DNA of 63,072 bases, taken from IMG/VR virus record IMGVR_UViG_3300044815_000135, positions 1 to 63,072 of that record; one strand, given 5' to 3'. How positions within the stretch are numbered: position 1 is the first letter of the stretch; each line of letters begins with the position of its first letter. Position numbers and translations under genes: made by a program. Below, piece by piece: positions 1,641 through 57,168 of this stretch. The notes below the pieces were generated by a model. The model searched no databases. It had not been told where the DNA came from and saw only the letters and a program-made list of their open reading frames with translations. Source of the DNA: a virus.

Positions 1641-2090
1641 TTATGAACAGGTCTTAGGTCCACCGAGCATTTCTGCCAGGCGATCAAATTCTTCACAATA
1701 GTTATTCTCTTTTGCGAGAAGTTCAGCATCTGCCCAAAACTGAGCAAGTCGAATGTCAGAACCAGTAATCTGCTCCACACCATTGCGAGTAGCGCGCTGA
1801 AGCCAAGATTTAACCAATAGCCGTTTCCCAGTAGGTCGTTTGTTGCGTTCAACTATGAGGAAAATGGTAATGGCCTTAGTACGTTCTTCATCATAGTAAA
1901 TTGGATTACTCTCCACCTCTCGATAAGAACCATGTATACTACTCCATGCTCTTCTAGTAGGTTTGGAGCCGAGGAGTTCAATTGGTGCATGGTCAGAAAC
2001 TTCACCTGGAGCTTGGTCAAACCACTTGATGAAAGCCTTACTCTCGACAATGTCAAATTGAGCCTGTCGCTGGGGGATTGTTAATGCCAT
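1641..2090 (-). CDS. hypothetical phage protein
   Basis: 149 residues, not recognised. It has a strong AAGGAG seven bases before its ATG and is the first gene downstream (on this strand) of the gene-free structured block at 2.1-2.7 kb. The centre contains a basic stretch (ERNKRPTGKRLLVKSWLQR). Soluble, with no membrane segment or metal motif. Confidence 0.8.
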   Translation of the reverse strand: MALTIPQRQAQFDIVESKAFIKWFDQAPGEVSDHAPIELLGSKPTRRAWSSIHGSYREVESNPIYYDEERTKAITIFLIVERNKRPTGKRLLVKSWLQRATRNGVEQITGSDIRLAQFWADAELLAKENNYCEEFDRLAEMLGGPKTCS

Positions 2091-2099
2091 TTTATCTCC

Positions 2100-2692
2100 T
2101 TAGTAGGTAAATTAATTACTGGGCAATGCTATCACCAAAGAATAATGGTGCTAAGGTTCTCTTTCTACACACTCCAAACCCCATACTGCCCGGTGGAACT
2201 CTAAGGAGCGGGAGTATGGGGTTCAGTAGGTTCCGCCTTATTCATTTCCTCCTGGGGGGTAGCCTATTAGTGGCTATGGGAGGGTAACTTCCTCGGCGTG
2301 ATTTCGTTACAATACAAGGCTATCAGCTAAGTTTAATGAGGTCAAGGCTCCCCTACACAGTCATAATGCCCGCTTCACTGGATTACCCATTGCTTCTGAC
2401 CCGTTTATAAGCGGGCGATCACTTTTGGCAGTTCATGACGGGCATTACTAAGGTTCGCAATAGTTCTACCAGGGTTAGCTTTACCTCTAAACCTCAGTCC
2501 TGGCTATAGATACGGCGGAGCAAATCACTCTCCTATGCATCTCATACAAGCGGGGCTTTTTTACCCCTAGGTTTTAATACATAGACCCTAAACTAGGCTC
2601 ACCCGATGAAGTTTACAGACCTTTTCTCACTAGTTGGGCATCTTCAACTCTGTAAGGGGACAATGAGCAACCCCATCGCTTAGCCTCAGCGA
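2100..2692 (-). ncRNA. candidate large structured noncoding RNA
   Basis: About 590 bases without a plausible ORF on either strand but with many complementary segments. Examples are AACCCCATACT at 2177-2187 with its complement at 2213-2223 (11 bp, extended by CCG/CGG); TAATGCCCG at 2364-2372 with CGGGCATTA at 2439-2447; CCAGG/CCTGG at 2469-2473/2499-2503; GGGG/CCCC at 2552-2555/2564-2567; and TCGCT/AGCGA at 2676-2680/2688-2692. The strand is inferred from the flanking genes. Size, ornate folding and phage location recall the GOLLD and ROOL RNA classes; no homology is shown. Confidence 0.5.
2177..2223. other. long imperfect hairpin within the structured block
   Basis: An 11-bp perfect arm (AACCCCATACT with its complement) is continued inward by CCG/CGG after a C mismatch, giving a roughly 47-base stem-loop. 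There is no T-run on either side, so a simple intrinsic terminator is unlikely. It is probably the 3' domain of the candidate RNA at 2.1-2.7 kb. Confidence 0.7.
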
Positions 2693-2944
2693 CTAAATAA
2701 TGCTATCATTTGGGTTTACGGGACCCAAATTGCCTTTTTCAAGTTGTACAACTGGTATATCTACAATGCAGGGACATTTTGGACAGTTATATTGATACCC
2801 GGCAGGTGAAAGATTTTGAATATTCTCGTGATTAGTACTTGTTGTTACTGTCGCCTCAAATTTTAAGTCTTGGGGAATAATAACATAGGGAATACCCTCA
2901 TTCATCAGACTTTCGCATGAGGGGCATTTTAGTCGGATTGTCAT
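2693..2944 (-). CDS. zinc-ribbon protein
   Basis: 83 residues with two cysteine pairs, CPSC (residues 8-11) and CPKCPC (around 54-59), spaced as in a small zinc ribbon. The ATG overlaps the upstream stop (TGATG). The stop is immediately followed by the first hairpin of the gene-free block. Likely nucleic-acid or protein binding; partner unknown. Confidence 0.75.
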   Translation of the reverse strand: MTIRLKCPSCESLMNEGIPYVIIPQDLKFEATVTTSTNHENIQNLSPAGYQYNCPKCPCIVDIPVVQLEKGNLGPVNPNDSII

Positions 2945-3906: not shown

Positions 3907-4778
3907 ATATCAATGGAATATGAGACCCTAGGTACTATTTCTATCATTTTTCTTCCTATTGGCCTCTGGCTCGGATCTTATTGGCAGTGACGTAGTAGTA
4001 AAAAGTTCGCTAAGAGCTCACAGAGGTGCCGTACCATGGTTGGTATTTGCCCCCCCTGTGTTTTTGGGGTTTATTACCCGGGGGGGTTCAGCATATCAGG
4101 ATCCGGGAGCAAAGTCAAGGATATGCAGGAGAATATTTATTCAGGATTGGATGGGCAAAATGAGGATCAATCGCGGATGATTTGATTCGGGAATATATGA
4201 GGATATATCGCGGATATTTTTGAGGGGAATATCGCGGTATTTTTATTGAGGATATATCATGGTATATATGCATGGGGATATATGCATCAATGGGTATATA
4301 TGATGGCGGGGCATATATGGGTTTGTATGGGCATCAGTGGGGGTAAGGGTGCCCGATATATCCCCCCATTGATCCCCCTATATTACCCCCTATCGATATA
4401 CCCCCTCATATGCGCGCCTATGCCCGATACGCCCCATATATACGCCCCCGATATAACCCCCTGATATCGATCCCCCAATGATGATTCCTCATATCCATGC
4501 CCCAACCCCCTGCCCGCGCATAATGAATCCCCCTCATATATACCCCCGCATGATATGGCGCCCCCTCGCCTCAACGCCGATGATGCGACCCCCTTTCGGA
4601 AATCGCGATCATTGGTCAGGGGGCGTTGTCAAGGCAAAAAAAAATATTTTTTTTTGTTCGAGTTTTTCCTTGCATTGTTAGTAGGGAGTATGGTAAAATA
4701 TTGTGAAGCGTTTTTTATTTGGGATTGCGCGCAAAAAAGCGCGAAGTCGAGGTTTAGTCGAAGTCGCGCGATTTTGGG
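3907..4778. repeat. gene-free low-complexity region with G-run to C-run switch
   Basis: No convincing gene. From about 4100 to 4345 the plus strand is almost C-free apart from CGCGG units and carries repeated GGATATATCGCGG- and GGGGATATATGC-like words. From about 4350 to 4620 it is G-poor, with C5-C6 runs alternating with ATATA words at roughly 11-14-base spacing. The halves resemble each other when one is reverse-complemented. A separate C7...G7 pairing flanks 4051-4086. The composition switch resembles a replication origin or a structure-forming element. ORFs drawn across it are composition artefacts. Confidence 0.6.
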
Positions 4779-5646: not shown

Positions 5647-5652
5647 GCTAAC

Positions 5653-5681
5653 ATCCTACCAAATCCTCTTACTTATGTCAA
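5653..5681 (-). promoter_or_regulatory. promoter TTGACA-N17-TAGGAT
   Basis: -35 at 5676-5681 and -10 at 5653-5658, 17-bp spacer. The -10 ends seven bases before the ATG at 5646, the spacing expected if transcription begins at the start codon. Confidence 0.75.
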
Positions 5682-5782
5682 GGCAAAAGGCAATCCCGAT
5701 AGCCATCTTCCTAGCCATCCGTGAGACCCTCAGTCCAACCCACTACACACTTCAAAGCCCCCATTCCTGAGGGCCTGAAGCA

Positions 5783-6208
5783 TTAGTTGATGGGAAGAAG
5801 CAAAGATCCTAGGTAAGCAAGTTGAACTGTTGAGGGTGTTACTTTCTCTGTAGTAGAAACCACCGGAGCAACCTCAACTGTCGGGGTAACGATGGTGGTG
5901 TCAACCCATTCCTCCTCGACTACTTGCCAGTTGGGGCAGTCACCGGTTTCGGTCCCAGTGGCCTGAGCAACTTCTGAGGAGCGGCTTGCCTCAACCCAGT
6001 CACCGTAAATGGTAACTCCTTCGACCAGTTCAGCCGGAGCAACCCAGTGAATGGTGGTGAAGGTGATCGTTGCAGTGGTGCAGTCGAGGACTGGTTCCAG
6101 GTACTCGTCATAAGTAGCGGGAGCCGGAGTCTCGTCAGCGTGAGCGATTGCAGCAGGAGCAAGAGCAAGCAGGATGCCTGTCGCAATTGCCAGGATGCGG
6201 ATGTTCAT
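5783..6208 (-). CDS. secreted protein with decayed cell-wall sorting signal
   Basis: 141 residues with a clear signal peptide (MNIRILAIATGILLALAPAA, cleavage near AHA-DE at 22-24). The mature part has paired Cys and YGDWV/TGDCPNWQV, recalling the YGEWTDGEYGC segment of the LAXTG protein at 60.2 kb. It ends LAYLGSLLLPIN: LAYLG looks like LAXTG with Thr changed to Leu, and the membrane segment and positive tail are missing, so it is probably released rather than anchored. Expressed from TTGACA at 6278-6283 and TAGTAT at 6254-6259, with a ~45-base leader and AAAGGA. Confidence 0.75.
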   Translation of the reverse strand: MNIRILAIATGILLALAPAAIAHADETPAPATYDEYLEPVLDCTTATITFTTIHWVAPAELVEGVTIYGDWVEASRSSEVAQATGTETGDCPNWQVVEEEWVDTTIVTPTVEVAPVVSTTEKVTPSTVQLAYLGSLLLPIN

Positions 6209-6253
6209 TTTAGTTCCTTTGGTTAGTGAAGCAGTGGATGGAGCTTATAAGAA

Positions 6254-6283
6254 ATACTACCACTTCTTCGCTACTAATGTCAA
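6254..6283 (-). promoter_or_regulatory. promoter TTGACA-N18-TAGTAT
   Basis: Drives the secreted protein. Unlike its neighbours it leaves a leader of about 45 bases containing AAAGGAACT before the ATG. Confidence 0.7.
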
Positions 6284-6323
6284 GGCGATTTATTGGCTGT
6301 TTAAGCCCGTAGGTTTTGAAGAA

Positions 6324-6337
6324 GTATGCTAGCATTC
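6324..6337. promoter_or_regulatory. palindrome copy 1 (GTATGCTAGCATTC)
   Basis: Imperfect copy of the GTATGCTAGCATAC palindrome repeated between the small genes of this block; likely a protein-binding site. Confidence 0.5.
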
Positions 6338-6373
6338 CTCCCACACCCAAATGGGCTGAGACACGCTCCTATG

Positions 6374-6391
6374 CCCCGGAGTGACCCGGGG
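6374..6391 (-). terminator. hairpin CCCCGG-N6-CCGGGG after the 86-residue gene
   Basis: Six-bp GC-rich stem six bases downstream of the stop at 6398. No T-tract follows, so termination efficiency is uncertain. Confidence 0.5.
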
Positions 6392-6397
6392 ACTTAG

Positions 6398-6658
6398 TTA
6401 GAGGAGGGCGAGTGCCCGGTCGGAAGGTGTGTAGTTCGGATCCAACTTCTTCATCTCATCGATGCAAAACTGAAGAGCCTTCTTCTTGGTGGCCCCGGTG
6501 AACCCGAGGGACTGAGCGACTGCAATGGCAGAGAAGCGGGATCGCAACTTCATCCCGGTTCCCAGTTCAATCTGCAGGGCTCCGATAAGCGAAACCAACT
6601 GAACCTTGCGGCGAGTGGTGGGATCGGTCATGTCGATGGTGAATCCGGAGTTAGTCAT
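6398..6658 (-). CDS. helical hypothetical protein
   Basis: 86 residues, MTNSGFTIDMTDPTTRRKVQ..., predicted alpha-helical with basic patches (SRFSAIAVAQSLGFTGATKKKAL). The repeated short-helix pattern could be a small DNA-binding fold; not recognised. Starts in an ATGA overlap with the upstream 53-residue gene and is cotranscribed with it. Confidence 0.75.
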   Translation of the reverse strand: MTNSGFTIDMTDPTTRRKVQLVSLIGALQIELGTGMKLRSRFSAIAVAQSLGFTGATKKKALQFCIDEMKKLDPNYTPSDRALALL

Positions 6659-6816
6659 GAATCAATATCCGTTTCTGTGTTCGAGGTCAGGTTGTCATTG
6701 ACCCAGAGGATGGCCCGCTCGGTGTCTCCCTTAGTAATCAGAAGGAACTTGATATCAGCCATTGCCTGCTGATAACCTTTTGAGTAGTTGCGAGAGTCGC
6801 GGTTATTGTTCGTCAT
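6655..6816 (-). CDS. 53-residue protein, leaderless
   Basis: MTNNNRDSRNYSKGYQQAMA..., ending NTETDIDS; helical and polar. ATGA overlap with the next gene. TAGAAT at 6823-6828 and TTGACA at 6847-6852 put the transcription start on its ATG. Confidence 0.7.
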   Translation of the reverse strand: MTNNNRDSRNYSKGYQQAMADIKFLLITKGDTERAILWVNDNLTSNTETDIDS

Positions 6817-6822
6817 ACCTAT

Positions 6823-6852
6823 ATTCTACCACCACGTGGCAAATGTTGTCAA
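6823..6852 (-). promoter_or_regulatory. promoter TTGACA-N18-TAGAAT (leaderless)
   Basis: Near-consensus hexamers. The -10 ends seven bases before the ATG at 6816, so no untranslated leader is expected. Confidence 0.75.
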
Positions 6853-6893
6853 GGTCAATTTTTTAGCTCCCTAAGGAAGTAGTGTGTCAAGGC

Positions 6894-6907
6894 GTATGCT
6901 AGCATAC
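6894..6907. promoter_or_regulatory. palindrome copy 2 (GTATGCTAGCATAC)
   Basis: Perfect 14-bp palindrome upstream of the promoter at 6823-6852 and directly beside a second TTGACA on the minus strand. Confidence 0.6.
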
Positions 6908-6975
6908 AACGGAGTCCACTAAGGCCTTAGGGACGCTCCAGTGCCCCCTATTCCTAGGAGGCCTGGATGTGAGGG

Positions 6976-7221
6976 TTAGTCACTCATTGCGTCGATGTAT
7001 GCATCCTCGTCTGAGTCCTCATCACCTGAGTCTTCATCCTCATCCTCGCCGAAGTCATCGCAAACCCAAATTCCTGAGGCGTGGTCGCAGTATCCGTGAC
7101 CAGTCGACCAGGCCTTCTCAACTGATTCCTTGATCGACTCATCAGAGCCGTAGAGCGAACCATCACAATCACCTGGTTCATGTCCGCAAGCGGGGAAGTC
7201 CTCGCAGCGTTCAGCCATCAT
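6976..7221 (-). CDS. Cys-rich acidic-tailed protein
   Basis: 81 residues. N-terminal MAERCEDFPACGHEPGDCDG has regularly spaced Cys/His and GYCDHASGIWVC adds two more Cys, so one or two metal sites are likely. The C-terminus is a run of Asp/Glu (DEDEDSGDEDSDED). Similar C-x5-C-G-H-x4-C modules occur in small actinophage proteins. Start chosen at the ATGATG seven bases after AAAGGA. Confidence 0.75.
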   Translation of the reverse strand: MMAERCEDFPACGHEPGDCDGSLYGSDESIKESVEKAWSTGHGYCDHASGIWVCDDFGEDEDEDSGDEDSDEDAYIDAMSD

Positions 7222-7235
7222 GGTCATTTCCTTTC

Positions 7236-7346
7236 TTAGCGGTTGGAGGAGCGGTGGTCGGAGTCGGACCAAGCGGAGGTCGACTTGTCAGGACAGTTGG
7301 AGTCATGACCTGAGATTGAGAGGCAGATTGAGCAGTTCGTATTCAT
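7236..7346 (-). CDS. 36-residue zinc-knuckle-like micro-protein, leaderless
   Basis: MNTNCSICLSISGHDSNCPD... carries C-x2-C-x5-H-x4-C, a zinc-knuckle spacing, then a Ser/Asp-rich tail. -10 TAAGGT at 7353-7358 and -35 TTGACT at 7376-7381 (17 bp) make it leaderless. It shares the CGH/SGHD...C pattern with the next gene. Confidence 0.6.
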   Translation of the reverse strand: MNTNCSICLSISGHDSNCPDKSTSAWSDSDHRSSNR

Positions 7347-7383
7347 ACCTAAACCTTACCATTGTCAACCCATCAAGTCAAGG

Positions 7384-7563
7384 TTATTCTTCAGTGTCTC
7401 TCATCATTTTGTCCCAGCAAGCGGAATGAGTGCCCGAGATGATTTGCTCCCTCAGGTTGGTGCTTACTGAGACCAGGGCATCCTGAATCAATTCCCCTTG
7501 TTGGTAGGTTTCCCATTCAATGCGAGGCACCTCGACTACCCCACCTCGATGGCAAAGAAACAT
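7384..7563 (-). CDS. 59-residue hypothetical protein
   Basis: MFLCHRGGVVEVPRIEWETY... followed by a helical part (QGELIQDALVSVSTNLREQI) and ending RDTEE. The start is uncertain: an internal GTG at VPRIEW is an alternative. Not recognised. Ends just before the promoter of the micro-gene at 7236-7346. Confidence 0.55.
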   Translation of the reverse strand: MFLCHRGGVVEVPRIEWETYQQGELIQDALVSVSTNLREQIISGTHSACWDKMMRDTEE

Positions 7564-7597
7564 GAGGGTGTGGCAATTACGATGGTTGTGTTAGGCA

Positions 7598-7762
7598 TCA
7601 GAGGATGGTCCTTCTCTTGCGTCGAGCGGGAGTGCCCCGACGATGGTTGAGTGATTTGTCTGCCTTGCGGTCGGGCATCACGAAAGAGAGGCCTTCGCGG
7701 CGGGCGAGGATGCGAGCGCGCATATCCTCAGCCTGGGCAGTGGTGATGGATGAATTCGTCAT
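7598..7762 (-). CDS. 54-residue basic protein, leaderless
   Basis: MTNSSITTAQAEDMRARILA... then an Arg/Lys-rich tail (HRRGTPARRKRRTIL), probably nucleic-acid binding. TAGCAT at 7769-7774 and TTAGAC at 7793-7798 (18 bp) place the start of transcription at the ATG. Confidence 0.65.
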   Translation of the reverse strand: MTNSSITTAQAEDMRARILARREGLSFVMPDRKADKSLNHRRGTPARRKRRTIL

Positions 7763-7840
7763 GCCTCAATGCTACCATAGTAAAGGGCAAAAGTCTAAGG
7801 CGTCCTCAGCGGCGATTTTGAGCGTGTCGCAGTCGTCGGC

Positions 7841-7854
7841 GTATGCCAGCATAC
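7841..7854. promoter_or_regulatory. palindrome copy 3 (GTATGCCAGCATAC)
   Basis: Variant with one central change (CTAG to CCAG) of the repeated 14-bp palindrome, about 45 bp upstream of the promoter for the 54-residue gene. Confidence 0.55.
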
Positions 7855-7878
7855 CTCAGAATTTCTACACGCCTAAGA

Positions 7879-7895
7879 GGGCCCCATAGGGGCCC
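7879..7895 (-). terminator. hairpin GGGCCCC-N3-GGGGCCC
   Basis: Seven-bp perfect GC stem a few bases after the stop of the 62-residue gene, followed by TCTTAGG. Strong stem, weak T-tract. Confidence 0.6.
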
Positions 7896-7902
7896 CCCTT
7901 TC

Positions 7903-8091
7903 TTATTTGTAGATAATTCGTTCAAGCAACCAGAGTTCAATTCGAGTGTAATCGGCGAGGCAGGCCTGAGGGTCGCGAGCGGTTTCGAGCAAGAAGTTCA
8001 GGTCGTAATCGTTCGGGTTCTCATCGATCGCAAGGAGTGCCTTGCGCATGTCAATTCCAGTAACTTCGGAAGGGATGATGTTTTTCGTCAT
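7903..8091 (-). CDS. 62-residue acidic protein, near-leaderless
   Basis: MTKNIIPSEVTGIDMRKALL..., helical and acidic, ending ELWLLERIIYK. TAAAAT ends five bases before the ATG. Followed by a strong GC hairpin. Function unknown. Confidence 0.65.
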   Translation of the reverse strand: MTKNIIPSEVTGIDMRKALLAIDENPNDYDLNFLLETARDPQACLADYTRIELWLLERIIYK

Positions 8092-8255
8092 ACTTCATTT
8101 TACCATACCCCCTCGCAAATGCCCTAATTCTTTCGAGGCCCCAGGAAGCATCGTAAGGTAACCCTCAAGTTTGCTGTAGTATTGGTCAGCTCATCTCGAC
8201 TCCACCCTTAGGATCGTTCCTGGGCCGGCTGTTTTAGCCCATGGAGTGTTTGGGC

Positions 8256-8269
8256 GTATGCTAGCATAC
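8256..8269. promoter_or_regulatory. palindrome copy 4 (GTATGCTAGCATAC)
   Basis: Second perfect copy of the 14-bp palindrome, about 160 bp upstream of the 62-residue gene and about 200 bp from the parS site. Confidence 0.6.
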
Positions 8270-8393
8270 CAGGAAAACCGCTGCCCCCTCAGAGACGCCT
8301 CTGACGCCTTCTGAGCCTATGGCGTTTTTGATCGCTCAGGCCAAACGTTATCAACATGTTAATAAAGATGTGCATAAGTTTTTCAACAATGGC

Positions 8394-8422
8394 CTTGACT
8401 TTCGCGAGCGACTATGGTTTAA
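8394..8422 (+). promoter_or_regulatory. plus-strand promoter TTGACT-N17-TTTAAT without a downstream gene
   Basis: The only good promoter in this interval pointing right. The transcript would run through the parS site and meet the C6/G6 hairpin at 8500-8515 after roughly 90 bases, so it could make a small RNA or a replication primer. Confidence 0.5.
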
Positions 8423-8465
8423 TTGATGTGAAGCGTGTTTACTTTTGATTAGCAAACGCTAACAA

Positions 8466-8481
8466 TGTTTCACGTGAAACA
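8466..8481. promoter_or_regulatory. parS: parS centromere site (ParB-binding), exact 16-bp consensus
   Basis: TGTTTCACGTGAAACA, identical to the chromosomal parS consensus bound by ParB across Gram-positive bacteria and Actinobacteria; with flanking bases the palindrome is 18 bp. No ParA or ParB gene is visible, so host ParB would be the partner. A 16-bp exact match in 63 kb is very unlikely by chance. Confidence 0.85.
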
Positions 8482-8499
8482 TCGACACACACCGAATCA

Positions 8500-8515
8500 C
8501 CCCCCGCGAGGGGGG
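8500..8515. terminator. hairpin CCCCCC-GCGA-GGGGGG
   Basis: Perfect 6-bp stem with a GCGA loop (TCGC on the minus strand), between the stop of the DNA-binding gene at 8530 and the parS site. It could end minus-strand transcription of that gene and the plus-strand transcript from 8394-8422. Confidence 0.6.
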
Positions 8516-8529
8516 ATCATCGGCGAGGG

Positions 8530-8787
8530 TTACTCGGCGTCGATCTCGTCGAGGTCAGCGTCGGTGGGCTCTTCGCCCTCGGCGCGTGCATCGGCCTTCG
8601 CCTTGGCGGCAGCCTGGAATGCGGTGAACTTCGACTTGAGGGAGCGAACTGCCGACTTCTCGATCGTCCAGCGGCCGCCCTTGCCGGGCTGCTCATCCTT
8701 CGGCGTGATCGAGCGGAGGAACTTGCGGGCGGTGCGCCCATCGGTTCCCAGTTCGGTCGCGAGCTCCGGAACGGTGATCTGTGCCAT
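8530..8787 (-). CDS. Lsr2-like DNA-binding protein with acidic tail (copy 1)
   Basis: 85 residues starting MAQITVPELATELGTDGRTA. The core RKFLRSITPKDEQPGKGGRW resembles the C-terminal DNA-binding domain of Lsr2-type nucleoid proteins and matches the core of the 16.6-kb paralogue (LRQFLRS...GSGGRYEF). A short acidic tail follows (EGEEPTDADLDEIDAE). The ATG at 8850 is rejected because it lies inside the -10 hexamer of the gene's own promoter; the ATG at 8787 has AGGAG upstream. Lsr2-family proteins silence or organise DNA; the target here is unknown. Confidence 0.75.
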   Translation of the reverse strand: MAQITVPELATELGTDGRTARKFLRSITPKDEQPGKGGRWTIEKSAVRSLKSKFTAFQAAAKAKADARAEGEEPTDADLDEIDAE

Positions 8788-8845
8788 TTGAATCAACTCC
8801 TGTAATTCGTCGATCAGCGGCGGTTGCGTTTGATTCGATATGTCA

Positions 8846-8873
8846 ATCATACCATAGTGACCCCCCTCGTCAA
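8846..8873 (-). promoter_or_regulatory. promoter TTGACG-N16-TATGAT
   Basis: -35 at 8868-8873, -10 at 8846-8851, preceded by TGG. Drives the DNA-binding protein below with a ~55-base leader containing AGGAG. Confidence 0.65.
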
Positions 8874-15719: not shown

Positions 15720-15748
15720 TTGACATCTTAGGTTCCAGCTGATAGCAT
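15720..15748 (+). promoter_or_regulatory. rightward promoter TTGACA-N17-TAGCAT
   Basis: -35 at 15720-15725, -10 at 15743-15748. The leader contains an AGCATATGCT palindrome and GAAAGGAAGC before the ATG at 15780. Confidence 0.75.
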
Positions 15749-22608: not shown

Positions 22609-25137
22609 CTACTGTCCCTTATACTCAAGTTTGAAGTCATATACCTGTTCGGGGCTTAGCTCAATCTTATCACCCCAATGTTGTCCAACAGATACATCGG
22701 CAACAATTGGAATATCAACCACAGTGCCAAACTTACGAGATACAAGGTCCATATCTTCCATGACATCCTTGATAATGGGTAAGCATCGAAACAACCAGTC
22801 ATCCCTAATCTCATAGTTGATGGCATCATGTACTAATCCAAGACAGTTAGCCGCAGCACCAATTTCTCTGAAACGTCGGTTAATTTCGATCATAGCCAGT
22901 ACAGCCAGGTCAGAAGCAAATCCTTGCACTGGTGAGTTAATGGCCTGACGTTCAGCTTCGGCGCGCACCCCCTGATCGGGTGAATATATATCAGGGAGAT
23001 GACGGATGCGCCCAATCGGACTTTGCACTCGTCCATATTCGTTTACCAGTCGACGCATTTTGGCGTGCCAGGGAAGCAATCTAGGATACAAATCAAAATA
23101 TGCCTTGCGTGCGCCTTGGGCTTCTGACATATTGAAGATAGAACCATAGTTCTCAAATGCGGTAATAATGAACTTACCAGGCCCCATACCATATAGAAAA
23201 CCAAAGTTAACCGGCTTACCTACCTTTTTGCGAATTTCTTTAGTAACTTGAGATTCAGGTAAACCAGTAACGCGCATGGAGGTAGTCATATGAATATCCC
23301 CACCAATAGCATAGATATGCTTCATTGTGGTTTCATTGGCTAGAAGAGCAGCAATCCTTAGCTCAATTTGAGAATAGTCAGATTCTACGAAGGTCCATCC
23401 GGGGGGAGCTCCAAAAAGACCCCTAATGAAAGGGTCCCGGGGGACTTGCTGGAGATTGACACCCCGCATTTTACCCCTAGTACCTGAAATCTTATCTGGG
23501 TCAGATTTGCCTGAACTAAGCCGGCCCGTAACTGTGCCACCGAGCTTGAATGTTGTATGTATCCTATGATCTTCATCGTATAACTCCGCGTATGGTCTAA
23601 AGAAACTGGATAGATGCTTCTGTGCAGTAACTCGCTCAAGCATTCCTTCAACTACCGGGTGCTTATCACGGAGTCCCATGAGAATACCCTCAGCCATGCT
23701 CGGGTCACCAGGCAAACCATCCTGTTTTTGCTTACCTCGTTCAATTATGGGAAGCTCTAGCCAATCAAATAACATCCAACGAGCAAAGATGCTAGCATTG
23801 AAGTTTTCTTTGTAGGGTATACGTTTATCCCCCGACTTCAAATGCTTTACAACTGCAGGCCACCGATCATCTTCGGGTGTGGGAAGTTCTGCAGCATCAC
23901 GGATATTTTGCTCAATACGGGCTAAGTTAGCTTCGGCAATGGGAGTTCGTTCATTGAGTCGTTGTACATCAATCCAAGCTCCTCGGATTTCAGAGTCAAT
24001 TAGGTCTCGTTGAGCAGGCATTGTTAATTTACTAAATACTCTAGCAATTCGAGGTTGAGCCTTTAGTTCTTCAACCAACTGCTGTTTAACCCAGTACATA
24101 TACCAAGTATCAAGAACATTGTAATGTAGGACATCCGCTATGGGGTATGAGTCAAGATTACCAGTATCAATACCCCATGGTTCTACTCCTAGTCGAGACA
24201 TCGCTTGAGGCTTTAGCCCCTTTTGAACATTCTCATTCAATAAGTGGATCGCAAGCATAGTATCAAAGGTAGGATAGAGTTTTACTCCATACCATATTAA
24301 CCACTTACAGTCGAAGCTTGCATTATGAGCAACTACCCTTTTAATCTTGGTACAATGCTTAGCCATGACCTCAAGAATACGTTGCCACATATTACGCCAT
24401 GGTGATTGTACATGAGCGAGGGGAATGGCAAAAACTGCCCGTTTTTTAATACCAAAGCTATCAATGACTACACAAGTGGCAGCAATGGAAATCATTCTAG
24501 AACCTTGCTCAGCCTGATAGTATTCCCCGCCCGCAGTCTCAATATCAACATAGATTTCATCAGTCATATCAAGAATCTTCCAAATCTTCTTGAGTTTTTC
24601 GACTGTGTCACCGACAATGTAATTAGGATCGGGAATACCTTGCTCACGTTCAAGAACCCGATTGGCAAATAGTCTCATATCCGCCATATATCCAGGCTTT
24701 TGCCCAGGATTGCGATTGACTGCTGAAGGAGAAATGGTTGCCATTACTATGGCATCACCATGATCGAAAGGTTTACCTCGATACTTCATAATGCCCGATT
24801 TACCAGCCATTACTTGTAGAGATTCATTACCTAAAGCTAAGATATACTTCGGATTGATTCTTTCAATCTCAGGAAGTAGATACTTAGCAGCATGCTCCTT
24901 GAGTTGCTTAGTGGTTAGAGAAGTATCAAAATCTCGACATTTGATTACTGGAGTAAAGTAAATCTTACTAGGATCAAGACCTAGCTCCTTCAACTCCAGT
25001 TCGAGCGAATCTTGAAATCTGCCAGAAGACTTGCGATTAGTTACTACTACGATTTCTGCATCTTTAGGACCTATAGCATAAGATTCAACATCATGCTCAG
25101 CACAATAGATGCACTGCTCATCAAGTTGAACTACCAT
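22609..25137 (-). CDS. family A DNA polymerase fused to N-terminal uracil-DNA-glycosylase-like domain
   Basis: 842 residues. The first ~170 (CIYCAEHDVE, FTPVIKCRDFDTS, KYILALGNESLQVMAGKSG, TISPSAVNRNPG) look like a family-4/5 UDG fold. A DEDD 3'-5' exonuclease follows, with YVDIETAGGE around 198 and a late YNVLDTWYMY. The polymerase domain has motif A (ESDYSQIELR), motif B (KVGKPVNFGFLYG) and motif C (VHDAINYEI, about 769-777). SPO1-type phage polymerases also carry such a UDG-like domain. This is the phage replicase; whether the UDG part is catalytic is unclear. Confidence 0.9.
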   Translation of the reverse strand: MVVQLDEQCIYCAEHDVESYAIGPKDAEIVVVTNRKSSGRFQDSLELELKELGLDPSKIYFTPVIKCRDFDTSLTTKQLKEHAAKYLLPEIERINPKYILALGNESLQVMAGKSGIMKYRGKPFDHGDAIVMATISPSAVNRNPGQKPGYMADMRLFANRVLEREQGIPDPNYIVGDTVEKLKKIWKILDMTDEIYVDIETAGGEYYQAEQGSRMISIAATCVVIDSFGIKKRAVFAIPLAHVQSPWRNMWQRILEVMAKHCTKIKRVVAHNASFDCKWLIWYGVKLYPTFDTMLAIHLLNENVQKGLKPQAMSRLGVEPWGIDTGNLDSYPIADVLHYNVLDTWYMYWVKQQLVEELKAQPRIARVFSKLTMPAQRDLIDSEIRGAWIDVQRLNERTPIAEANLARIEQNIRDAAELPTPEDDRWPAVVKHLKSGDKRIPYKENFNASIFARWMLFDWLELPIIERGKQKQDGLPGDPSMAEGILMGLRDKHPVVEGMLERVTAQKHLSSFFRPYAELYDEDHRIHTTFKLGGTVTGRLSSGKSDPDKISGTRGKMRGVNLQQVPRDPFIRGLFGAPPGWTFVESDYSQIELRIAALLANETTMKHIYAIGGDIHMTTSMRVTGLPESQVTKEIRKKVGKPVNFGFLYGMGPGKFIITAFENYGSIFNMSEAQGARKAYFDLYPRLLPWHAKMRRLVNEYGRVQSPIGRIRHLPDIYSPDQGVRAEAERQAINSPVQGFASDLAVLAMIEINRRFREIGAAANCLGLVHDAINYEIRDDWLFRCLPIIKDVMEDMDLVSRKFGTVVDIPIVADVSVGQHWGDKIELSPEQVYDFKLEYKGQ

Positions 25138-56344: not shown

Positions 56345-56640
56345 TTTAGCTCCTAAGTCAGTTTGGCGGGTATCGCGGAATCTGTACCATCATCGATTTC
56401 CCATACCCACTACCAGAGGTACATAACCTAGTAGGTTCTAATCGCCTAAACATCGCCGTGACAGGGCGTGAATGACTTGTTCCTATTCCTCTTTCGGGAG
56501 GCGGGCTTAATCCGGTGGAACCACTACCTTTGAGCTGAGTCCTGCGCTTTGTTTCCTCACGCTTCCTTCGAGAAGTCTCACCTCGGTATCGGCCATAGGT
56601 ACGAATCCATTTAAGGATCAATCTCAAATACCCTTAGTAC
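56345..56640 (-). ncRNA. possible structured RNA segment (no convincing gene)
   Basis: The only ORF here (56358-56627, 89 codons, Arg/Ser/Gly/Pro-rich) differs in composition from every real gene nearby and has no ribosome-binding site. Paired segments are visible on the minus strand: GGTAC TAAGG...CCTTA...GTACC upstream, CCTC-CCGAAA-GAGG, and AACCT-ACT-AGGTT. Probably untranslated; the boundaries are guesses. Confidence 0.3.
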
Positions 56641-56745
56641 CTTATTCGTTTCACGGAGAATCAGGCCGCTGGGTGACTATAGAGGATGAATTGCGTCATT
56701 TATCAGTGTCATTCTGAGAGCACTGCACCAGATCTTTAATTAGAT

Positions 56746-56791
56746 GCCCCAAGCCTAGCCGACAATTTGGCAGTCATAACCGCGTTGGGGC
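56746..56791 (-). ncRNA. short RNA element closed by a 7-bp stem
   Basis: GCCCCAA at the 5' side pairs perfectly with TTGGGGC 46 bases on; inside, GCC-N8-GGC can pair. The 7-bp closing stem has the length of a tRNA acceptor but there is no T-arm consensus. It lies directly downstream of the tRNA at 56819. Confidence 0.35.
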
Positions 56792-56818
56792 GACCCATCA
56801 TCGAATGATGTGGATCAG

Positions 56819-56891
56819 TGGAAATGGCAGGATTCGAACCGACTACCTCTTTGACTGAGTCAAAGCGCTCTACCAACTGAGCTACATTCCC
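56819..56891 (-). tRNA. tRNA with abnormal anticodon loop (predicted anticodon UCA)
   Basis: Seven-bp acceptor stem (one G-U), D-arm GCTC...GAGC, T-arm with TTCGAAT loop and discriminator A; CCA not encoded. The anticodon arm CTTTG-ACTCAGT-CAAAG gives UCA in the normal register, but position 33 is C rather than the near-universal U, and the loop can close further (GAC/GTC). It may read UGA, be decayed, or be a tRNA mimic. Many genes here end in TGA, so efficient opal suppression would be costly. Confidence 0.6.
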
Positions 56892-56895
56892 AGAG

Positions 56896-56969
56896 TCGGA
56901 TAAACGGGACTTGAACCCGTACTAAGTTGATTTTAAGTCAACTGCCTCTACCAATTGGGCTATTATCCG
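56896..56969 (-). tRNA. tRNA-Leu(UAA) with short variable loop
   Basis: Perfect 7-bp acceptor (CGGATAA/TTATCCG), D-arm, anticodon arm GTTGA-CTTAAAA-TCAAC (U33 present, anticodon UAA), 5-base variable loop and T-arm ACGGG-TTCAAGT-CCCGT, discriminator A. UAA reads the Leu codon UUA, common in this phage but rare in GC-rich actinobacteria. Bacterial tRNA-Leu normally has a long variable arm; its absence is odd. Confidence 0.8.
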
Positions 56970-56973
56970 AGGT

Positions 56974-57035
56974 GCCAGTCGCGGTCAGAACCTAGTTCTT
57001 ACGGGTTAGGAAAGCATCTGAATAGCCCCACTGGC
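56974..57035 (-). ncRNA. tRNA-like remnant
   Basis: GCCAGT and ACTGGC close a 62-base segment containing CTTTC-CTAACCC-GTAAG, the size of an anticodon arm (loop with U33, anticodon AAC), but the D-arm and T-arm are truncated. Probably a decayed tRNA or a non-standard tRNA-like RNA. Confidence 0.35.
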
Positions 57036-57062
57036 TGTTGGCCTGCAATGTATCCAACTGCG

Positions 57063-57157
57063 TGGGAGGGAAAGACTCGAACTTCCTCGGAGCCCCGAAT
57101 TGCTCCTACCCTAATGCTTATTTGTCATCCCCGAAATACAAATAAACATTCCTCCCG
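57063..57157 (-). ncRNA. tRNA-like structure lacking normal D and anticodon arms
   Basis: Ends pair as an acceptor-like stem (GGGAGG/CCTCCC) next to a proper T-arm (GGAAG-TTCGAGT-CTTTC). In place of D and anticodon arms there is a 13-bp hairpin (AATGTTTATTTGT with its complement, one G-U) with a 12-base loop, then GGAGC-N8-GCTCC where a long variable arm would be. Clearly structured, not a canonical tRNA. Confidence 0.5.
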
Positions 57158-57168
57158 GTACTGCGAAG

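What the first reader, a model, noticed from the sequence alone, without database searches (positions are those of the whole stretch)
2095..2695. Candidate ~590-nt ornate structured RNA with no coding capacity
The block contains many perfect complementary segments, including two long-range stems of 9-11 bp and several nested hairpins, some mutually exclusive (TAATGCCCG can pair with CGGGCATTA; GCCCGC with GCGGGC). Established knowledge: GOLLD and ROOL are large ornate RNAs of phages and prophages, GOLLD first found in lake samples and often near tRNAs. Size and setting match, but no homology is shown, so it may be a new class.
Basis: partly seen in the sequence, partly recalled or inferred. 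Interest (0 to 1): 0.85.

Follow-up and report, generated by a model that had tools for sequence, protein, structure and literature searches.

The report
Phage promoter region with noncoding leader
The 600-base stretch is a real non-coding gap in a phage genome, but it is best explained as a set of three tandem promoters that read into the neighbouring gene through moderately folded leader RNA; nothing ties it to the giant GOLLD or ROOL RNAs.

Summary
The window is a 63-kb contig of a tailed phage related to Curtobacterium phage Shrew and Microbacterium phages Triscuit and Huwbert. The block (2091 to about 2747) is truly non-coding and has two inverted repeats that are rare in shuffles. Rfam, including the GOLLD and ROOL models, finds nothing, even at E up to 10. 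I found no homologue in 12 related phages, IMG/VR, GTDB genomes, phage records or plasmids, so covariation cannot be tested. Folding is modest on the minus strand (z about -2.5) and ordinary for this group: 26% of comparable gaps fold as well or better. The clearest signal is different. The 10-mer AATGCTATCA, repeated in the block, is on the minus strand TGATAGC(A/C)TT, an extended -10 box. Three copies lie at about 2705, 2322 and 2131, all reading towards the 149-aa gene (ATG at 2090), each with a -35-like hexamer 17 bp upstream (TTGGGT, TTGACC, TTAGCA). The same box occurs in canonical promoters at window 15743 and in relatives. Best reading: a minus-strand tandem-promoter and leader region. 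The first predicted transcript could be a folded RNA of about 375 nt; this remains an untested possibility.

The parts
2091..2747 (-). Non-coding block between the 83-aa zinc-ribbon-like gene and the 149-aa gene; its real upstream edge may be about 2747, because a homologue of the 83-aa protein ends where the window protein runs on for about 17 residues
2699..2728 (-). Putative promoter Pa: TTGGGT-17-TAGCAT with extended -10 (TGATAGCAT); predicted start near 2692
   Evidence: weak -35 (3 of 6)
2317..2345 (-). Putative promoter Pb: TTGACC-17-TAGCCT with extended -10 (TGATAGCCT); predicted start near 2310
   Evidence: -35 5 of 6
2126..2154 (-). Putative promoter Pc: TTAGCA-17-TAGCAT with extended -10 (TGATAGCAT); predicted start near 2119
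   Evidence: -35 4 of 6; ribosome-binding site and ATG follow
2094..2101 (-). Shine-Dalgarno-like AAGGAGAT before ATG 2090
   Evidence: sequence
1641..2090 (-). 149-aa gene of unknown function driven by the block
2693..2944 (-). 83-aa CxxC...CxxC protein upstream; homologue in relative G005 (38%)
2319..2692 (-). Possible 374-nt leader or non-coding RNA from Pa to Pb, closed by a predicted 20-bp long-range helix (2690-2669 with 2343-2319)
   Evidence: z -2.98; the helix is below 0.7 probability when the 602-nt block is folded alone
2170..2230 (-). 21-bp hairpin between Pb and Pc, the most robust local structure
2708..2730 (.). Perfect dyad ATTTGGGT-N7-ACCCAAAT across the Pa spacer; operator-like, or a plus-strand terminator-like hairpin (tail TGCCTTTTTC)

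Best explanation
The block is a minus-strand transcription control region of a phage accessory arm, about 1.3 kb beyond the inferred end of the terminal repeat. Three tandem sigma70-type promoters with an extended -10 box read towards the 149-aa gene. Pc, 35-40 nt upstream of the ATG and followed by a ribosome-binding site, makes a short-leader mRNA. Pb and Pa make the same message with leaders of about 220 and 600 nt, which fold moderately. The promoter motif and its enrichment are shown computationally. Use of the promoters, the exact start sites and any regulatory role of the leader (for example through the 21-bp hairpin, or a repressor at the dyad over Pa) are inferred.
For: AATGCTATCA with up to one mismatch is over-represented in the window (16 against 6.8 expected, 0 of 100 shuffles); three copies lie in this block in one orientation. 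On the minus strand each is TGATAGC(A/C)T with a -35-like hexamer exactly 17 bp upstream (TTGGGT, TTGACC, TTAGCA). Shuffling the block gives two or more such promoters (at least 4 of 6 in the -35) on one strand in 15 of 5000 cases, and three TGATAGC(A/C)T in 0 of 5000; the plus strand has none at that threshold. The same box forms a perfect promoter at 15743 (+), TTGACA-17-TGATAGCAT, just upstream of a gene start with a ribosome-binding site. It recurs with 5-6 of 6 -35 boxes in relatives G002, G007, G009, G010 and G011. Across 728 kb of the group the motif class is 6-fold over one shuffle set (91 against 15) and about 6 times denser in gaps than in coding DNA. Gene-like minus-strand ORFs flank the block on both sides.
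Against: No transcript data. Pa has only a weak -35 (3 of 6). Three promoters do not by themselves need 600 nt of spacing, and segments 2692-2319 and 2309-2091 each fold with z near -2.9, so the leader itself may matter. No homologue exists to show that the arrangement is kept.
Confidence: 0.6

Rival explanations
1. A stand-alone structured non-coding RNA of unknown class is made from Pa on the minus strand (about 375-600 nt), and its fold is the function.
For: The predicted Pa start (about 2692) falls next to the start of a predicted 20-bp closing helix (2690-2669/2343-2319); segment 2319-2692 has z -2.98 (0 of 100 shuffles) and the whole block -2.5. No coding capacity.
Against: Segment ends were chosen from the fold; the closing helix is below 0.7 probability when the 602-nt block is folded alone; such z values are common in gaps of this group; no homologue and no Rfam match; no minus-strand terminator found.
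Confidence: 0.2
2. The block is decayed accessory sequence: small genes once driven by Pa and Pb have been lost, leaving their promoters in non-functional DNA.
For: In this arm and the terminal repeat each small gene tends to have its own extended -10 promoter, with ATG a few nt downstream in several cases; left-arm genes are poorly conserved among relatives; no other phage carries the block.
Against: No residual similarity to any protein family or to relatives' genes; the stop density is higher than in shuffles.
Confidence: 0.15
3. A plus-strand RNA (about 2121-2740) with its own terminator, antisense to the operon direction.
For: Terminator-like hairpin 2708-2730 with a T-rich tail; predicted pairing of GGGCAAT (2121) with ATTGCCT (2729-2735); well-defined plus-strand fold of 2321-2500 (z about -3).
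Against: No plus-strand promoter of the phage's type at the 4-of-6 threshold; plus-strand terminator-like hits are no more common than chance; the whole block's plus-strand z is only -1.0; no homologue by covariance model in 750 kb of relatives.
Confidence: 0.05

Closest known systems
Phage intergenic tandem promoters of the sigma70 extended -10 type (TTGACA-17-TGnTAnnnT)
   Same: Same hexamers, spacing, and position upstream of a ribosome-binding site; the same box is used elsewhere in this phage and its relatives
   Different: Unusually long spacing (190 and 380 bp) and long folded leaders; activity not measured
GOLLD RNA (Rfam)
   Same: Phage-borne and non-coding
   Different: GOLLD RNAs often exceed 800 nt and lie near tRNA islands (PMC12286853); no model match and no tRNA beside the block
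ROOL RNA (Rfam)
   Same: Phage-borne and non-coding; similar length from memory
   Different: No model match, not beside a tRNA island, multi-branched pseudoknotted fold not demonstrated

Membership tests
GOLLD RNA | Match to the Rfam covariance model | tested here: not met
   cmscan of the window at gathering score and of 1900-2900 at E up to 10: no GOLLD
GOLLD RNA | Typical location near tRNA islands in phages or prophages (PMC12286853) | tested here: not met
   tRNAs only at 56818-56969
ROOL RNA | Match to the Rfam covariance model | tested here: not met
ROOL RNA | Covarying multi-branched secondary structure with pseudoknots | not testable with these tools
   No homologue found in any collection searched
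Phage sigma70-type tandem promoters | -35 and extended -10 elements at about 17 bp, more than chance | tested here: met
Phage sigma70-type tandem promoters | The same motif at other gene starts of the phage and relatives | tested here: met
Phage sigma70-type tandem promoters | Transcription actually starts there | not testable with these tools
   Needs RNA 5'-end mapping

The most novel reading that the evidence does not exclude
The Pa transcript is a new class of structured phage RNA (about 375-600 nt, minus strand), closed by a long-range helix whose 3' strand overlaps the next promoter, so far known from this phage alone.
Probability: 0.15. Interest if true: 0.6.

Novelty: new member of a known kind. 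Interest (0 to 1): 0.25.

Why it matters
It shows how a non-coding phage gap full of inverted repeats can look like an ornate RNA while its clearest signal is a repeated promoter box, and it supplies a usable promoter motif for this group of actinobacterial phages. If the leader RNA proved functional it would add an orphan to the few large phage RNAs.

Tried and rejected
GOLLD, ROOL and all other Rfam families: no match at E up to 10 except a microRNA family far below its threshold. Homologues by DNA: none in phage records or plasmids; only 12-17 nt chance matches in 11 relatives. Back-translated scans of the block in IMG/VR and GTDB genomes: none confirmed; with exact 8-residue patterns this mainly excludes close relatives (roughly 90% identity, my estimate). 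Helix-pattern scans: scattered matches that I read as chance (only the two were aligned to the block). A single-sequence covariance model of plus-strand 2338-2487 found only itself in relatives. A supposed synteny with the gap after Shrew gene 10 was wrong: that gap is the end of Shrew's terminal repeat and shares no sequence. Coding under recoded stops: rejected. Plus-strand RNA with its own terminator: considered at length, then down-weighted when the promoter motif proved to be on the minus strand. GAACCTTAG as an operator: not convincing.

Full report
Setting. The window is a 63,072-base virus record. It encodes a typical tailed-phage set: terminase, portal, tape measure, a family A DNA polymerase, primase-helicase and Cas4-type nuclease. 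Its nearest named relatives are Curtobacterium phage Shrew (79.5% identity in one conserved protein) and Microbacterium phages Huwbert and Triscuit; eleven further relatives are in IMG/VR. In Shrew, duplicated genes show a terminal repeat of about 4.5 kb whose end carries GATATA/GGGG repeats. A similar repeat tract occurs in the window at about 4.1-4.6 kb, with BLAST similarity to the corresponding gaps of relatives, so the block lies about 1.3 kb beyond the inferred end of the terminal repeat, in a poorly conserved accessory arm.

Observation. The block 2091-2692 lies between two minus-strand ORFs, of 83 and 149 aa. It has no coding capacity under the standard code or with TGA or TAG read through. 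It has a long hairpin at 2170-2230 and the pair TAATGCCCG/CGGGCATTA. Folding exceeds shuffles only moderately and on the minus strand: z -2.5, 3 of 200. In 150-nt windows on the minus strand only the hairpin region (2090-2289) stands out. The important control is the group itself: 153 long-gap strands of this phage and relatives have mean z -1.66, and 26% are at or below -2.5.

Known families and homologues. No Rfam family matches. No homologue was found in phage records, plasmids, eleven IMG/VR relatives, all of IMG/VR or GTDB genomes by the methods available. Covariation, the proper test of an ornate RNA, therefore cannot be done. A homologue of the 83-aa protein in G005 ends at the motif VDIPIER, where the window protein continues for about 17 residues into the block. 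This suggests, but does not prove, that the non-coding unit begins near 2747.

What the block contains. A 10-nt repeat, AATGCTATCA, occurs three times in one orientation (2125, 2316 with one change, 2699). Read on the minus strand it is TGATAGC(A/C)TT, an extended -10 element. Each copy has a -35-like hexamer exactly 17 bp upstream: TTGGGT (Pa), TTGACC (Pb) and TTAGCA (Pc). Block shuffles reach two promoters of at least 4 of 6 on a strand in 15 of 5000 cases and three boxes in none; the plus strand has no promoter at that threshold. The same box makes a perfect promoter at 15743 (+), shortly upstream of a gene start with a ribosome-binding site, and recurs with strong -35 boxes in five relatives. 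The general motif is 6-fold enriched in the group and concentrated in gaps. Pc is followed by AAGGAGAT and the ATG of the 149-aa gene. A perfect dyad, ATTTGGGT-N7-ACCCAAAT, spans the Pa spacer and could be an operator (one search finds no second exact copy) or a plus-strand terminator.

Mechanism. The best-supported reading is a tandem-promoter region that reads into the 149-aa gene with leaders of about 30, 220 and 600 nt. The motif, spacing and enrichment are shown; promoter use and regulation are inferred. The predicted Pa transcript starts next to a predicted long-range helix and could be an RNA gene of about 375 nt (z -2.98). However, the helix disappears at 0.7 probability when the block is folded alone and the segment ends were chosen from the fold, so I keep this as a rival.

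Verdict. Observation partly confirmed; interpretation partly supported (non-coding, probably transcribed) but not as GOLLD, ROOL or a demonstrated ornate RNA. Interest is low to moderate.

Noticed in passing
L013:11895-13595, L023:8281-8853, L121:3691-4516, L124:7692-8730, L119:8388-9363, L113:15993-16921, L008:11748-12268; L008:11748-12268 is syntenic with window 56345-57168: Relatives carry tRNA-bearing or tRNA-like non-coding regions with conserved 40-80-nt modules. Rfam finds Pistol ribozymes in two of them (L013:11998-12045, L121:4167-4223), which fits ribozymes next to phage tRNAs as reported for theta ribozymes (PMC10879173).
   Followed up: partly
L013:12369-12447, L023:8622-8699, L121:4032-4100, L113:16435-16520, L008:11920-12020: A conserved module of about 80 nt next to tRNA-like 3' ends (...ACGGCTTG...ACAGAAACAAA...GAAGTTAAACG) seems to keep a helix by compensatory change (CTGG/CCAG, GCGG/CCGC, GCCCC/GGGGC by eye). 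The L013 copy has no Rfam match even at E up to 10. It may be an unrecognised ribozyme or RNA element and deserves its own study.
   Followed up: partly
L023:8500-8622, L113:16350-16454: tRNA-like sequences with matching acceptor ends but an insert in the anticodon region, missed by default ARAGORN and by Rfam; intron-bearing or non-canonical tRNAs.
   Followed up: no
window 56818-56891 (-): ARAGORN calls tRNA-SeC, but it looks like an ordinary-length tRNA with a UCA anticodon, so a UGA suppressor is likelier.
   Followed up: no
window 5650-8860 (-): Several strong extended -10 promoters (TTGACA-17/18-TGGTAGnAT) with ATG a few nt downstream suggest leaderless early genes in the terminal repeat.
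   Followed up: no
window 4050-4650: Dense GATATA/CCCC repeats, similar in kind to the end of Shrew's terminal repeat; BLAST links this gap to gaps in relatives G005, G008 and G009; probably the genome terminus or packaging region.
   Followed up: partly
window 22609-25137 (-): DNA polymerase with an N-terminal uracil-DNA-glycosylase-like domain fused to exonuclease and family A polymerase domains.
   Followed up: no
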